This document shows, piece by piece, positions 1,080 through 4,793 of a stretch of DNA of 64,000 bases. This DNA comes from Natronobiforma cellulositropha (GTDB lineage Archaea > Halobacteriota > Halobacteria > Halobacteriales > Natrialbaceae): contig NZ_JANZXN010000032.1 in the NCBI RefSeq assembly GCF_025629245.1, forward strand, positions 62,001-126,000, written 5' to 3'. The notes below the pieces were generated by a model. That model searched no databases, was not told the origin of the DNA, and was given only the letters and a program-made list of their open reading frames with translations. Each line of letters begins with the position of its first letter. The stretch's first letter is position 1. A program made the position numbers and the translations under genes.

Positions 1080-3233
1080 TTAGTGTTCCTCCTCGAGTTC
1101 GGGTTCGTCGTCGGTCTCTATCTGGTCCCAGTCCGGGTGGTCGTTGATGCCGTAGGTCACGCCGAGTGCGTAGTAGAAACGCAGGTCGTCGGTGTCGAGC
1201 GTCCACTCACCCGGGTCGGGGTTGAGAATCGTCTCGCGCAGTCGTTCGACGATGTGTTCGGCTTTCGTTCCCGGATACGATTTTCCGGCCTTCTTCTCGG
1301 CCCGCGTGTAGGTGAGCGTCTTCGCGATGGTCTCCTGTGTGACCTTCTTGATGCGTGAACGGCTAATCGACTTGACCGGATACTGATCGACGAGCGTCGT
1401 CGACCGGTTCTCGCTGTACTCCTGGTAGCTGCCGATGTCACCGACCAGTGCGCCGAGTAAGAAGGCTCCGCGGCGCTGGTCGTTGACTCGCTCCTCGTCG
1501 TCCGGGTCGCTGACGAGAGCGGGTGTCTGTTCGATAAACGATTCGAGTTTCGCCGCCGCGGGATGGCCCCCATCGGCGATCAGAATTTCTTCGGGTGCTG
1601 ACATCGTGTATTCCTCGTACGTGGGTTCGTCCGTGATCGATCGTTTCTGTGGGTCGTTCATCGTCAACAGCTCAAGTTCGTCATCCGCCATCGCACACAG
1701 TTGTGCGAACTGACTGGCGACAAGCAACGAGGGGAAGCCGTCGAACTCGTCGCTCGTCTGTTCGGTGATTATGCGCTCGACGTACTCTTCGAGTAGCAAC
1801 TCGACGGCGGTCGGCTCGCCACTCAGCACGTTGATGAGGACCTCGATTCGCGGGTCGTCGGCCTCGGCTTCGGCATCGTCTCGCTCGGCGAACGTCTGGT
1901 GGAAGTACCAGCCAGTCGTGATTGCGTTGAGGCGGTCACGGTTCTCCGACAACAGGTTCCACTTCTCGTTCGTCGGGAGCGGTGGTGACCACTCGGTGTC
2001 CGTATTGAACGCGCTGGTGTGCTCGACGATTCGACCGTGTTCGATCGCGAGTTCCTTCGGGTAGTGCAGCCGACCGTTCAGCGTCTCGCCGAATACGTCG
2101 TAGCGAGACATCTGGTGGGGCATTACCGCCGCGACGTAGAAGCGGAGGGTGTTCTCCTCGTATCCATTCTCGTCTCTCTCCCGCTTGTACGCGTCTTCGA
2201 TGGGTGTCTGCTCGTCGTCTTCCGTCGTGACGCGATAGAGCATGTTGTACAGCTTGTAGGCCTTCTCCACGGTGGACCGCCCGAAGAAGTACGGCAAGCA
2301 GTACACCTTCGCCCCAAACGTCCGGTACGTGCAGGCTTCGACGAACGTCTCTGCGTTCATCACCGTGACGGCGGCATCTTCCGAAATCGGATGAGAACGC
2401 CACGCGTGCTCGATGTCGAGACCGGGGAACTTCTCGAGTTGTTTGCCGAGATAGTAGTTCTGCGGGTCCTCTGCCGTCCCGACGGTGCGCGCAGGTGTCT
2501 CCGTCACGAGGTCGGTCGCCTCGCCCGAGGAGTCGTTGGCCTTGTTCTTCGTGACGAGTTTCGACAGCTTTCGCTGTCGCATCGCCTCGAGAAAGACGTC
2601 GATCTCTCCGGGCCAGCGATACTCGCCGTCTCGTTCGGTCTTCACCTGTACCGTCAACAGGGCGGTCGCCGACTCACCGCCCAGTTCGTCGATGACCTCG
2701 GCTTCGATCCGCTCGAGTGTTTGCTCCTCTGCACCGAGTTCTGCCAGGCGGTCGATGATCCACCCCTCGGGATGGGTTTCGGCGACGTCGGAGACGACGT
2801 CGTCGGTCGGCCACTTCGTCAGCCGTTCCTTCGCGTAGCGGGCGAGTTTCTCCGGGTCGCTGTTCTGACCCGCCTGGTGGGTGATGCTGTGGTCGATGCC
2901 GCGAGCAGCAGCGTACTTGCAGTGGCCGACCGGCTGCACCAGGTCCGCCGTGTATCGCGTCAACTGGACGGGTCCGACGGCATCATCGGCGAGCGCTGGC
3001 TCGCTCGAGACGTCGACACGGACGACGAGCAGGCTGTCGTCGGTATCGACGAGACCGTCCGCAGCGTCGGGCGTCAGGTAGGAGGCGTACTCGCCGCCGC
3101 CGGTCGTCGCGAGTGTGTAGAGCTTTCCGTAGAGGAACTGCACGTCCCGTAACGACCCGATCGGCGTCTCCGGTAGCTCCGCACGCAGCTTTTCGGGCGG
3201 ATACGTATCGCGAAACGCCTCAGGCGAAAGCAT
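1080..3233 (-). CDS. cas8b: Type I-B Cascade large subunit Cas8b (Csh1)
   Basis: This 717-residue protein fits the TM1802/Csh1 family in length, acidity and position between cas6 and cas7. Cas8b recognises the PAM and anchors the 5' handle of the crRNA in the surveillance complex. The start (MLSPEAFRDTYPPEKL) overlaps the end of cas6 by 14 bp, which supports one polycistron read leftwards. The assignment rests on context and overall similarity to haloarchaeal Csh1 (for example the QFLYGKLYTLATT segment near the N-terminus). I cannot point to a catalytic motif, as expected for a non-enzymatic subunit. No frameshift is seen, so Cascade is probably functional, which matters for the pseudo-CRISPR element upstream. 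Confidence 0.9.
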   Translation of the reverse strand: MLSPEAFRDTYPPEKLRAELPETPIGSLRDVQFLYGKLYTLATTGGGEYASYLTPDAADGLVDTDDSLLVVRVDVSSEPALADDAVGPVQLTRYTADLVQPVGHCKYAAARGIDHSITHQAGQNSDPEKLARYAKERLTKWPTDDVVSDVAETHPEGWIIDRLAELGAEEQTLERIEAEVIDELGGESATALLTVQVKTERDGEYRWPGEIDVFLEAMRQRKLSKLVTKNKANDSSGEATDLVTETPARTVGTAEDPQNYYLGKQLEKFPGLDIEHAWRSHPISEDAAVTVMNAETFVEACTYRTFGAKVYCLPYFFGRSTVEKAYKLYNMLYRVTTEDDEQTPIEDAYKRERDENGYEENTLRFYVAAVMPHQMSRYDVFGETLNGRLHYPKELAIEHGRIVEHTSAFNTDTEWSPPLPTNEKWNLLSENRDRLNAITTGWYFHQTFAERDDAEAEADDPRIEVLINVLSGEPTAVELLLEEYVERIITEQTSDEFDGFPSLLVASQFAQLCAMADDELELLTMNDPQKRSITDEPTYEEYTMSAPEEILIADGGHPAAAKLESFIEQTPALVSDPDDEERVNDQRRGAFLLGALVGDIGSYQEYSENRSTTLVDQYPVKSISRSRIKKVTQETIAKTLTYTRAEKKAGKSYPGTKAEHIVERLRETILNPDPGEWTLDTDDLRFYYALGVTYGINDHPDWDQIETDDEPELEEEH

Positions 3234-4035
3234 TCTCTCCCTCGAGTTCCGTCTCGTCCGGCCGCGTTCGTTCGGCGACGTTCACGAACCCGAGTCCCAG
3301 CGAGTTGCGCTCGCCGAGACCCACGTCGAGCGCCAGATTCAGGTGGCGGCGGTGGTGGTCGTCTCGAACCGTGTACTCGAGTTTCCACTTGCTCAACACG
3401 TAGGTCATCGTCTGCCCCTCAGTTACCGTCACTGGCACCGCGAACGTCTTGAGCAACTCGTAGCCGTCGAACAGCGACCCGTCGACGTCGCTCGGACCCG
3501 GCAAGTACTCGGGTGCGAACAGGTCGTGTTTCTGATCGAGGTTCGCCTCGAGCTGGCGCACCAGCGGCTCCGTCGTGTGCTCCGGACGCCAGTAGACCGC
3601 CGTCTCCCCGCCGGGGTGGTCGATACCGTACTCGTCACACTGCCACGGCGGAATCCGAACGAGGAGACCAGTCCCCGTCTCGAGCGTCCCTCGAGTCCCC
3701 GGTTCGCCGACGTCGGGGGCGAGTGCGCGAACGTCCTCGACGGAGAAGGGCATCGAGCCGACGTTCAACTCCGACTCGTCGAACAGATCCGCCGCCACGT
3801 TGGCGAGCAGTTCCTCGTCGTGAGAGGCCACCAGGAGTTTCCGCTCGTCACCCTCGCGCATATCTCGCGGCGGGAACGGATTCGACATACAGAACCCCGG
3901 TGGCTCCCCCGAGTCGTGCAACTCGTCGTAAGCCGTCCCCTCGAGCGCTCGCCACAGCCGCCCACGCAACTTGTGGTGGTAGGCGTTGTCGTACGCGGCG
4001 TCCGCTCGAGCGGACATATGTACCATGATTCGCAC
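3220..4035 (-). CDS. cas6: crRNA-processing endoribonuclease Cas6
   Basis: Cas6 cleaves the repeat RNA and leaves the 8-nt 5' handle of crRNAs. The 271-residue frame has the N-terminal RAMP region (RADAAYDNAYHHKLRGRLW) with conserved tyrosines and histidines, and near the C-terminus the glycine-rich loop GLGERNSLGLGFVNV that marks Cas6. I chose the GTG at 4035 because haloarchaeal Cas6 proteins start with a short strand of the MR-V-V-LSARADAAYDN type, and because AGAGGTGA (4045-4052) is a good Shine-Dalgarno site 9 nt upstream. Later ATGs at 4026 and 4017 are possible. It is the first gene of the leftward cas operon. Confidence 0.93.
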   Translation of the reverse strand: MRIMVHMSARADAAYDNAYHHKLRGRLWRALEGTAYDELHDSGEPPGFCMSNPFPPRDMREGDERKLLVASHDEELLANVAADLFDESELNVGSMPFSVEDVRALAPDVGEPGTRGTLETGTGLLVRIPPWQCDEYGIDHPGGETAVYWRPEHTTEPLVRQLEANLDQKHDLFAPEYLPGPSDVDGSLFDGYELLKTFAVPVTVTEGQTMTYVLSKWKLEYTVRDDHHRRHLNLALDVGLGERNSLGLGFVNVAERTRPDETELEGENAFA

Positions 4036-4044
4036 TAGCGATCG

Positions 4045-4110
4045 TCACCTCTGTTGCTGATTACCATTTCACTCATTGTCAGTCGAATTGGTGATATAAA
4101 AATGTTTTTC
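4045..4110 (-). promoter_or_regulatory. cas operon promoter and cas6 ribosome binding site
   Basis: On the minus strand a TATA-like box TTTTTATAT occupies 4102-4094, with an A-rich BRE-like stretch just upstream (GGAAAAAC). A start site about 25 nt further on (near 4070) would give a short leader containing the AGAGGTGA Shine-Dalgarno site at 4052-4045. The box is only about 25 bp from the pseudo-CRISPR element, so the two transcription units are closely packed. No match to the pseudo-spacer seed is visible here, which argues against direct silencing of the cas promoter by that guide. Confidence 0.6.
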
Positions 4111-4127
4111 CAAAATGAGTAAATAAT

Positions 4128-4222
4128 AGAGGAACCCCACAAGGGTTCGGCTGGAAGTGTGCGCTACCTCACCTGCTAAGTGAGAAGGAAGAGCTTCAAC
4201 CCATCTGTGGTTCGGCTGTAAC
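4128..4222 (-). ncRNA. creA: CreA-like antitoxin guide RNA: one 35-nt spacer between two degenerate CRISPR repeats
   Basis: Read on the minus strand, 4222-4193 is a 30-nt pseudo-repeat that ends in GTTGAAGC. This is the 8-nt 5' handle of haloarchaeal crRNAs, where ATTGAAGC is usual. After a 35-nt pseudo-spacer (4192-4158) comes a second pseudo-repeat (4157-4128). Against the common haloarchaeal I-B repeat I count 22 and 21 identities of 30. The first copy is decayed in the middle and intact at its 3' end. The second keeps CCGAACCCTTGTGGGG and has lost its last five bases. This asymmetric decay keeps only what Cas6 needs to make one crRNA, as described for creA genes. Possible TATA-like words (CTATAT near 4234-4239, CATAGTATG near 4250) precede the first repeat. 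It reads in the same direction as, and just upstream of, cas6. The host's true repeat is not in the window, so identities are against the family consensus from memory. Confidence 0.82.
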
Positions 4223-4260: not shown

Positions 4261-4507
4261 GTGCTTAGGTATTCGGTTACCTTCTCTTCCTCCAGGCCTG
4301 AGTATGACCGTACTTAATCCAACTAATAGTTGGGTCAGGAACCATCTCTGACTCGTTGTGCTTGCTTCCTTTTCCCTTCGATTGCACCGGCAAGTGTAGC
4401 TTTTCTTTCGTCATATCATTGGAATCGATTCACTCCATAAGGATTATGACCGGTGCGGACAACTACGCCAGCACCAATCGCTATCTAGACGGAGTGGTTG
4501 GTATTGG

Positions 4508-4599
4508 TCACACAACGTTAGTCTTGGCGGACCGTTGTGTGTCCCATCTCCTTCCCTTGTACTTTCTCTTCTTTCTCACTTAGAGTATACTCTTCTCAT
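4508..4599 (-). ncRNA. candidate CreT-like small toxic RNA with mini-ORFs rich in rare arginine codons
   Basis: The minus strand around the guide target carries three candidate mini-ORFs. (1) GTG at 4579 to TGA at 4508, 23 codons, starting GTG AGA AAG AAG AGA and containing a tandem AGG AGA; ten Lys/Arg against one Asp is the opposite of the acidic proteome. (2) ATG at 4599 to TGA at 4576, seven codons, starting ATG AGA AGA, the arrangement described for an AGA-tRNA-sequestering CreT. (3) ATG at 4547 to TAA at 4518, behind the purine-rich AAGGGAAGGAG. A 9-bp inverted repeat (4509-4517 with 4533-4541) could fold the RNA 3' part. The box ATATATA at 4619-4613 would start transcription near 4590 and favours (1); a box at 4591-4586 would favour (3). 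The strand is purine-rich, so AGA triplets may be partly chance. The identity of the toxin is inferred. Confidence 0.5.
4564..4583 (+). promoter_or_regulatory. Cascade target site of the CreA-like guide (TTC PAM plus 17-nt seed match)
   Basis: The plus strand has TTC at 4564-4566, the PAM used by haloarchaeal type I-B systems, directly followed by TCTTCTTTCTCACTTAG (4567-4583). The pseudo-spacer begins TCTTCCTTCTCACTTAG. Sixteen of 17 positions agree. The only mismatch is position 6, which type I effectors leave unpaired and which was shown to be dispensable in the Haloferax seed. Beyond position 17 the match stops, which suits binding without cleavage. The site lies between or just after possible TATA boxes at 4586-4591 and 4613-4619 of a leftward promoter, so bound Cascade would block that promoter. 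Confidence 0.82.
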
Positions 4600-4625: not shown

Positions 4626-4642
4626 CTCCAGTCGAGCGGTCA

Positions 4643-4793
4643 TGTTTAGTTAGGCGAAAAACAGCCGACCAACCGCCGCTGGGCGGGGCTTTCTGGGTGT
4701 TCGCGGCCAACGGATCGGCAGGTCAAGCTAAACTAAACACCACCCAGTCAAGTTGTGTGTCTGTCTGCGGTGGAGAACACCCAGAAAGCCCCG
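4643..4793. repeat. inverted-repeat block with 19-bp perfect arms
   Basis: CGGGGCTTTCTGGGTGTTC at 4684-4702 is perfectly complementary to 4775-4793. A second, interleaved pair is TGTTTAGTT (4643-4651) with AACTAAACA (4731-4739). No open frame in this block has haloarchaeal coding character. The look is that of a dispersed palindromic element or the remnant of a small non-autonomous element rather than a gene; only a genome-wide search could tell. Confidence 0.6.

What the first reader, a model, noticed from the sequence alone, without database searches (positions are those of the whole stretch)
4128..4222. Single-spacer pseudo-CRISPR upstream of cas6: a CreA-type antitoxin guide
Two 30-nt repeat remnants 35 nt apart lie on the minus strand just upstream of cas6. 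Their decay is asymmetric: the leading copy keeps the handle GTTGAAGC, and the trailing copy keeps the stem AACCC/GGGTT but loses the next handle. Only one crRNA can come from it. Published CreTA modules (CRISPR-regulated toxin-antitoxin RNA pairs) have this form and sit beside type I-B cas genes. Loss of Cascade would release the toxin, making the cas operon addictive.
Basis: partly seen in the sequence, partly recalled or inferred. Interest (0 to 1): 0.92.

Follow-up and report, generated by a model that had tools for sequence, protein, structure and literature searches.

The report
CRISPR-repressed toxin locus with mini-protein
Next to its CRISPR genes this salt-loving archaeon carries a one-spacer pseudo-CRISPR whose guide RNA should switch off a neighbouring toxin gene, and that toxin gene encodes a tiny protein shared with other such loci, including ones already shown to be toxic by an unknown mechanism.

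Summary
Two degenerate copies of the host repeat (170 true copies in the genome) flank one 35-nt spacer upstream of cas6 in a complete type I-B operon. The spacer's first 17 nt match window 4567-4583 at 16 positions. The only mismatch is position 6, which does not pair, and a TTC PAM precedes the match. PAM plus seed occurs once in the 3.76-Mb genome; the PAM-distal spacer does not match. This is the published CreA design.

New here: between that target and creA lies an unannotated 45-codon gene (4414-4277, minus). Its motif PTxxW[IL]xxGHxxA recurs in eleven other creA loci, 4-131 nt upstream of creA. An HMM finds it in 10 of 391 haloarchaeal genomes, always beside creA and 9 times 220-350 nt upstream of cas6. 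Codon positions differ 0.39/0.24/0.67, so it is translated. Haloarcula marismortui, Haloferax mediterranei, Halomicrobium mukohataei and Natrinema gari have it. The creT loci of the first three and of Natrinema sp. J7-2 were shown toxic, mechanism unknown (PMC9458426, PMC8501985).

Best reading: a CreTA module whose toxin is probably this mini-protein rather than a rare-codon RNA. Toxicity was not tested here.

The parts
4193..4222 (-). psiR1 of creA (degenerate repeat; keeps the 8-nt 5' handle GTTGAAGC)
   Evidence: 23/30 to host repeat, handle 8/8; host repeat
4158..4192 (-). psiS, 35-nt spacer of creA; first 17 nt carry the target match
4128..4157 (-). psiR2 of creA (keeps the 3'-handle part, first 22 nt 19/22; last 8 nt 3/8)
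4564..4583 (+). CreA target: TTC PAM (4564-4566) plus protospacer TCTTCTTTCTCACTTAG (4567-4583), 16/17 to psiS, only position 6 differs
   Evidence: unique in the whole genome
4555..4626 (-). Putative toxin promoter region: purine-rich element plus TATATA at 4618-4613, second TATA-like box AGTATACT at 4591-4584, and GAAAG/TACAAG overlapping the PAM complement; the box actually used is not determined
   Evidence: read; Hhub-type geometry; inference
4415..4562 (-). Strongly folded leader between target and ORF; hairpins about 4540-4510 and 4496-4433
   Evidence: z -4.66 for 4420-4540; z -4.47 for the 160 nt before the ORF; 8 other loci -2.2 to -7.1
4277..4414 (-). Mini-protein gene, probable toxin: MTKEKLHLPVQSKGKGSKHNESEMVPDPTISWIKYGHTQAWRKRR (an internal ATG at 4345 is possible)
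   Evidence: conserved family next to creA; codon-position signal
4093..4100 (-). TATA-like box of the cas operon between creA and cas6 (not matched by psiS)
   Evidence: sequence; CreR-type match absent
3220..4026 (-). cas6
   Evidence: TIGR01877, 65.5 bits over cut-off 58.65
1080..3233 (-). cas8b
   Evidence: TIGR02591
2..1078 (-). cas7 (continues past the window end; cas5, cas3, cas4, cas1, cas2 follow on the contig)

Best explanation
The locus is a CreTA-type CRISPR-regulated toxin-antitoxin module upstream of a complete type I-B cas operon. Inferred by homology: Cas6 cuts the transcript at psiR1 and psiR2 to give one crRNA-like CreA RNA, which joins Cascade. Shown by sequence: CreA matches, through its PAM-proximal half only, a unique TTC-flanked site in the promoter region of the gene just upstream. 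Inferred: Cascade sits there and represses transcription without Cas3 cleavage, because the PAM-distal half does not pair. Shown by comparison: the repressed unit contains a structured leader and a conserved, translated gene for a 30-60 aa protein with motif PTxxW[IL]xxGHxxA. Inferred: this mini-protein is the toxin, freed when Cascade is lost or blocked, so that cells become addicted to the cas operon. Confidence about 0.95 that it is a CreA guide with this target, about 0.6 that the mini-protein is the toxic agent.
For: Repeat remnants with divergent decay. Seed plus PAM match 10/10 (16/17 overall), 0 of 3000 dinucleotide shuffles, one site in 3.76 Mb. In 17 haloarchaeal loci with a creA candidate upstream of cas6, 9 have a 10/10 TTC target of their own, against 6 of 272 cross-pairs; three of the nine (L087, L092, L094) are close homologs of one another and are the probable source of the cross hits. 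Two more have 10/10 with PAM TAC, and H. mediterranei 10/10 TTC. H. hispanica and H. hubeiense-type modules were recovered as positive controls. The mini-protein is found in 10 of 391 class genomes at E<1e-10, all beside a creA, 9 of them 220-350 nt upstream of cas6. Codon-position differences are 0.39/0.24/0.67 against a flat ~0.75 in flanking DNA. H. marismortui pNG400, H. mediterranei pHME505, H. mukohataei DSM 12286 and N. gari carry it. creT from Hmed, Hmuk, Hmar and Natrinema sp. J7-2 cut transformation of H. hispanica ~10^4-fold (PMC9458426), with no rare-codon ORF found (PMC8501985).
Against: No expression data for this host. The toxic agent in the published creT constructs was not mapped to this ORF, and their exact boundaries were not read. 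The leaders are also strongly folded in nine loci, so an RNA toxin remains possible. The window's target lies on the opposite strand from that of the other mini-protein loci. The start codon and the promoter in use are not fixed. Natrinema sp. J7-2 itself is not in the collections; its relative N. gari is.
Confidence: 0.62

Rival explanations
1. CreTA with an RNA toxin: the structured leader (two hairpins, 4540-4433), not the peptide, is toxic; the small protein is accessory (for example a regulator or a leader peptide).
For: Leaders fold far better than shuffles in nine loci. Known CreTs of H. hispanica and H. hubeiense act as RNAs (PMC8501985).
Against: No k-mer is shared among the leaders beyond chance, whereas the protein motif is conserved and under protein-level selection.
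Confidence: 0.22
2. CreTA with an H. hispanica-like rare-codon toxin: mini-ORF ATG AGA AGA GTA TAC TCT AAG TGA at 4599-4576 sequesters the AGA-decoding tRNA.
For: Tandem AGA codons and a UGA stop beside the target. AGA is rare, 2.84 per 1000 codons. Among the 30 tRNA loci scanned, one Arg-UCU gene appeared.
Against: The ATG lies ~14 nt after the TATATA box, so upstream of the expected start of transcription, and no Shine-Dalgarno motif was seen. No other mini-protein locus has such an ORF next to its target.
Confidence: 0.08
3. CreR-type autoregulator: the single guide represses the cas operon promoter rather than a toxin.
For: A cas promoter-like box lies next to it, and CreR has the same crRNA-like form (PMC12737573).
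Against: psiS has no match in 4036-4128 (best 6/10). The only genome match is upstream of a separate small gene.
Confidence: 0.03
4. A dead end: an eroded two-repeat CRISPR whose spacer match is an accident.
For: Repeats are degenerate.
Against: Seed conserved exactly where Cascade pairs, with mismatch only at the flipped-out position 6; 0 of 3000 shuffles; the same layout in eleven other loci.
Confidence: 0.02

Closest known systems
H. marismortui, H. mediterranei, H. mukohataei and Natrinema sp. creTA (Cheng 2021 PMC8501985; Cheng 2022 PMC9458426)
   Same: Two degenerate psiRs, creA 180-200 nt upstream of cas6, seed target ~550 nt upstream of cas6, structured leader, mini-protein with PTxxW[IL]xxxH (N. 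gari taken for Natrinema)
   Different: Window's own psiS, target on the opposite strand, a longer basic N-terminus than in most. The papers read do not mention a protein in these loci
Haloarcula hispanica CreTA
   Same: Type I-B, psiR-psiS, seed 1-5 and 7-11 with TTC (recovered)
   Different: It lies between cas6 and cas8b, has one psiR and an AGA-AGA RNA toxin; the window has two psiRs and a mini-protein gene
Halobacterium hubeiense CreTA
   Same: Upstream of the cas operon, two psiRs, TTC PAM, target in the promoter
   Different: Toxin is a six-codon AUA-AUA leaderless ORF; not present in the window
CrePA (Shu 2025, as described in PMC12737573)
   Same: Protein toxin repressed by CreA-guided effector
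   Different: CreP typically has a KilA-N domain and acts on FtsZ; the mini-protein is 30-60 aa with no Pfam match
CreR
   Same: Single crRNA-like guide beside cas genes
   Different: CreR matches the cas promoter; this guide does not

Membership tests
CreA (CreTA antitoxin) | One spacer between one or two degenerate relatives of the host repeat, beside cas genes | tested here: met
CreA (CreTA antitoxin) | Divergent decay: psiR1 keeps the 5' handle, psiR2 keeps the first 22 nt | tested here: met
   8/8 against 3/8 in the handle; 15/22 against 19/22 in the first part
CreA (CreTA antitoxin) | Seed complementarity 1-5 and 7-11 to a PAM-flanked site in the promoter region of an adjacent gene, with little complementarity further on | tested here: met
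   10/10 plus TTC; in positions 18-35 2 of 18 match by reading the sequence. The promoter itself is inferred
CreA (CreTA antitoxin) | Cas6-processed small RNA with 8-nt 5' handle | not testable with these tools
   needs small-RNA sequencing
CreTA | Toxic creT repressed by CreA-Cascade | not testable with these tools
   no expression data; counterparts in other haloarchaea are toxic (PMC9458426)
CreTA, rare-codon RNA toxin type | Mini-ORF with tandem rare codons, efficient start, downstream stem-loop | tested here: inconclusive
   ATG AGA AGA found but misplaced relative to the promoter; a conserved mini-protein gene is present instead
CrePA | CreA-repressed protein toxin with KilA-N domain | tested here: not met
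   no Pfam match for any of nine members except one at E 0.089 to an unrelated domain
CreR | Guide matches the cas operon promoter | tested here: not met
   best 6/10

The most novel reading that the evidence does not exclude
Many haloarchaeal CreTA modules, including those of H. marismortui, H. mediterranei and H. mukohataei, are not all-RNA systems: they share one overlooked family of CRISPR-repressed mini-protein toxins (30-60 aa, PTxxW[IL]xxGHxxA), found only beside creA. Several members read W[IL]xxGH[IT]RAxP, which recalls the SecM arrest motif FxxxxWIxxxxGIRAGP. The peptide might therefore jam the ribosome that makes it, a ribosome-level counterpart of tRNA sequestration; that last step is a guess (about 0.1).
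Probability: 0.55. Interest if true: 0.85.

Novelty: new variant of a known kind. Interest (0 to 1): 0.78.

Why it matters
CreTA was proposed as the first all-RNA toxin-antitoxin type (type VIII), and its toxins were called diverse with mostly elusive mechanisms. A conserved mini-protein gene shared by loci already shown to be toxic gives them one common, directly testable toxin candidate, offers a way to find such modules (HMM plus seed rule), and suggests CRISPR-regulated protein toxins beyond the described KilA-N type. The window adds a further member in a genome where it was unrecognised.

Tried and rejected
Rare-codon toxin at 4599-4576: kept only as a minor rival, because the expected transcription start lies inside or after it. 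GTG ORF from 4579, ATG ORF at 4547 and the plus-strand 45-codon ORF (4446-4580): no conserved relatives for the plus-strand one; the others were not pursued. CreR: no cas-promoter match. DNA-level homologs of the whole module in 60 relatives and the 125-genome family: only CRISPR-array or repeat-element hits. Rfam: only sub-threshold matches, the two best-placed being CRISPR repeat models on the two psiRs. Viral contigs: no exact copy of handle plus seed; the mini-protein alignment was too divergent for a viral scan. Pfam and PADLOC: nothing. Shared k-mers in leaders: none above shuffles. AlphaFold on the 45-aa protein alone: one C-terminal helix, pTM 0.25, not used as evidence. Not readable here: Li 2021 Science, Shu 2025 Nat Chem Biol, the CreR paper.

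Full report
What was checked. The window lies at 62001-126000 of contig C26 of a 3.76-Mb haloarchaeal assembly. The genes next to the finding are cas6, cas8b and cas7; cas5, cas3, cas4, cas1 and cas2 follow on the same contig, and a true repeat lies on that contig too. The system is thus a complete type I-B operon with arrays.

The host repeat GTTTCAGACGAACCCTTGTGGGGTTGAAGC is present in 170 copies. Copy 1 (4222-4193, minus) matches 23/30 with an intact 8-nt handle; copy 2 (4157-4128) matches 22/30, with 19/22 in the first part and 3/8 in the handle. No 30-mer in 2000 shuffles of the region reached 22. This split is the 'divergent degeneration' described for creA (PMC8501985).

The decisive test is the spacer. 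Its first 17 nt match 4567-4583 at 16 positions, and the single mismatch is at position 6, which does not take part in pairing. The site is preceded by TTC, the type I-B PAM. Seed positions 1-5 and 7-11, found necessary in H. hubeiense by mutation (PMC8501985), are 10/10. None of 3000 dinucleotide shuffles of the upstream region gave 10/10 with TTC, and none of 1000 reached 16/17 anywhere. TTC plus seed occurs once in the whole genome, at this site. By eye, positions 18-35 match at only 2 of 18, which fits binding without full R-loop and cleavage. The cas6 promoter region has no match (best 6/10), which speaks against a CreR.

Comparative test. Cas6 homologs were found in 124 of 391 haloarchaeal genomes, and the flanks of about 90 were scanned. 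Seventeen have a creA candidate upstream of cas6. Nine of these have a 10/10 TTC target of their own, against 6 of 272 cross-pairs. Three of the nine (L087, L092, L094) are close homologs of one another and are the probable source of the cross hits, which were not listed pair by pair. With PAM left free, two further loci have 10/10 with TAC (L128, L129). The same scan recovers H. hubeiense-type modules with ATG AAG CCA ATA ATA TGA and the H. hispanica module between cas6 and cas8b, so it works on known cases.

The toxin. A 45-codon ORF on the minus strand (4414-4277) had weak relatives beside cas6 in other genomes. Reading those showed a common motif, PTxxW[IL]xxGHxxA, and a motif scan and an HMM then found it in further creA loci. 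Distance from ORF stop to psiR1 is 39-65 nt in most, 74 in H. mediterranei, 131 in L085 (the weakest match) and 4 in G159. Searched over 391 whole genomes, the family has ten hits at E<1e-10. Nine lie 220-350 nt upstream of cas6 on its strand; the tenth (G159) lies 2.5 kb away but directly before a creA of its own. A family-wide search gave five genomes and a phylum-wide sample four, all already known. Within the 13 motif codons, differences per codon position are 0.39, 0.24 and 0.67, against about 0.75 at all positions in flanking DNA. This is the mark of a translated, selected protein. No Pfam or PADLOC family matches.

Link to experiments. L090 is Haloarcula marismortui ATCC 43049 plasmid pNG400, where the ORF is not annotated. 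H. mediterranei ATCC 33500 pHME505 has ORF, creA and a 10/10 TTC target. G098, source of L119, is Halomicrobium mukohataei DSM 12286, identified by its plasmid NC_013201.1. The creT genes of H. mediterranei, H. mukohataei, H. marismortui and Natrinema sp. J7-2 each lowered transformation of H. hispanica about 10^4-fold (PMC9458426). For these four no rare-codon ORF was found and 'distinct toxicity mechanisms' were suggested (PMC8501985). The papers read here do not mention a shared protein; subscription papers could not be read.

How it most likely works. Shown by sequence: guide-like repeats, unique seed-PAM target, conserved translated mini-gene downstream of the target, structured leader. 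Inferred: processing by Cas6, repression by Cascade at the promoter, toxicity of the mini-protein, addiction to the cas operon. Most uncertain is whether the peptide or the folded leader is the toxic agent. The leader folds better than shuffles in all nine loci tested (z -2.2 to -7.1) but shares no sequence beyond chance, whereas the protein motif is conserved. Several members read W[IL]xxGH[IT]RAxP. This resembles the SecM arrest motif FxxxxWIxxxxGIRAGP (motif found by text search) and suggests ribosome jamming; it is a resemblance, not a test.

Points against. The window's target lies on the strand opposite to that of all other mini-protein loci, though at the same distance from cas6 (-541 against -548 to -580 in most). 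Which TATA-like box drives transcription is open. A tandem-AGA mini-ORF at 4599-4576 resembles the H. hispanica toxin but starts about 14 nt after the best TATA box, too early for transcription from it.

Verdict. The module belongs with published haloarchaeal CreTAs by every feature testable here, and the new element is the shared mini-protein gene.

Noticed in passing
window 4638-4745: A ~107-bp MITE-like repeat with near copies elsewhere in the genome abuts the presumed toxin promoter.
   Followed up: partly
L123 (G087:C1:1016003-1019767): A creA locus upstream of cas6 with a mini-ORF ATG AGG AGA TAA, a tandem rare-arginine toxin candidate not mentioned in the papers read.
   Followed up: no
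L092 (G151:C72): H. hubeiense-type creT with AGA AGA in place of ATA ATA (ATG AAG CCT AGA AGA TGA).
   Followed up: no
L161, about -610 to -295 relative to cas6: Natrialbaceae archaeon B1-Br10_E2g27 has creA at -195 with a ~100-aa ORF between it and a 9/10 target at -887: possibly another protein toxin kind.
   Followed up: no
L128 and L129, about -550 relative to cas6: Two creA loci whose 10/10 seed targets carry PAM TAC instead of TTC, with handles GTTGAAGA.
   Followed up: partly
window 4415-4562 and leaders of eight other loci: The stretch between CreA target and mini-ORF folds strongly in every locus without shared sequence; its role is unexplained.
   Followed up: partly
L056 (G344:C39): cas6 with two in-frame stops (Natronorubrum thiooxidans); upstream lie near-intact CRISPR repeats and no creA was recognised, which would fit a broken cas6 being tolerated where the module is absent.
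   Followed up: no
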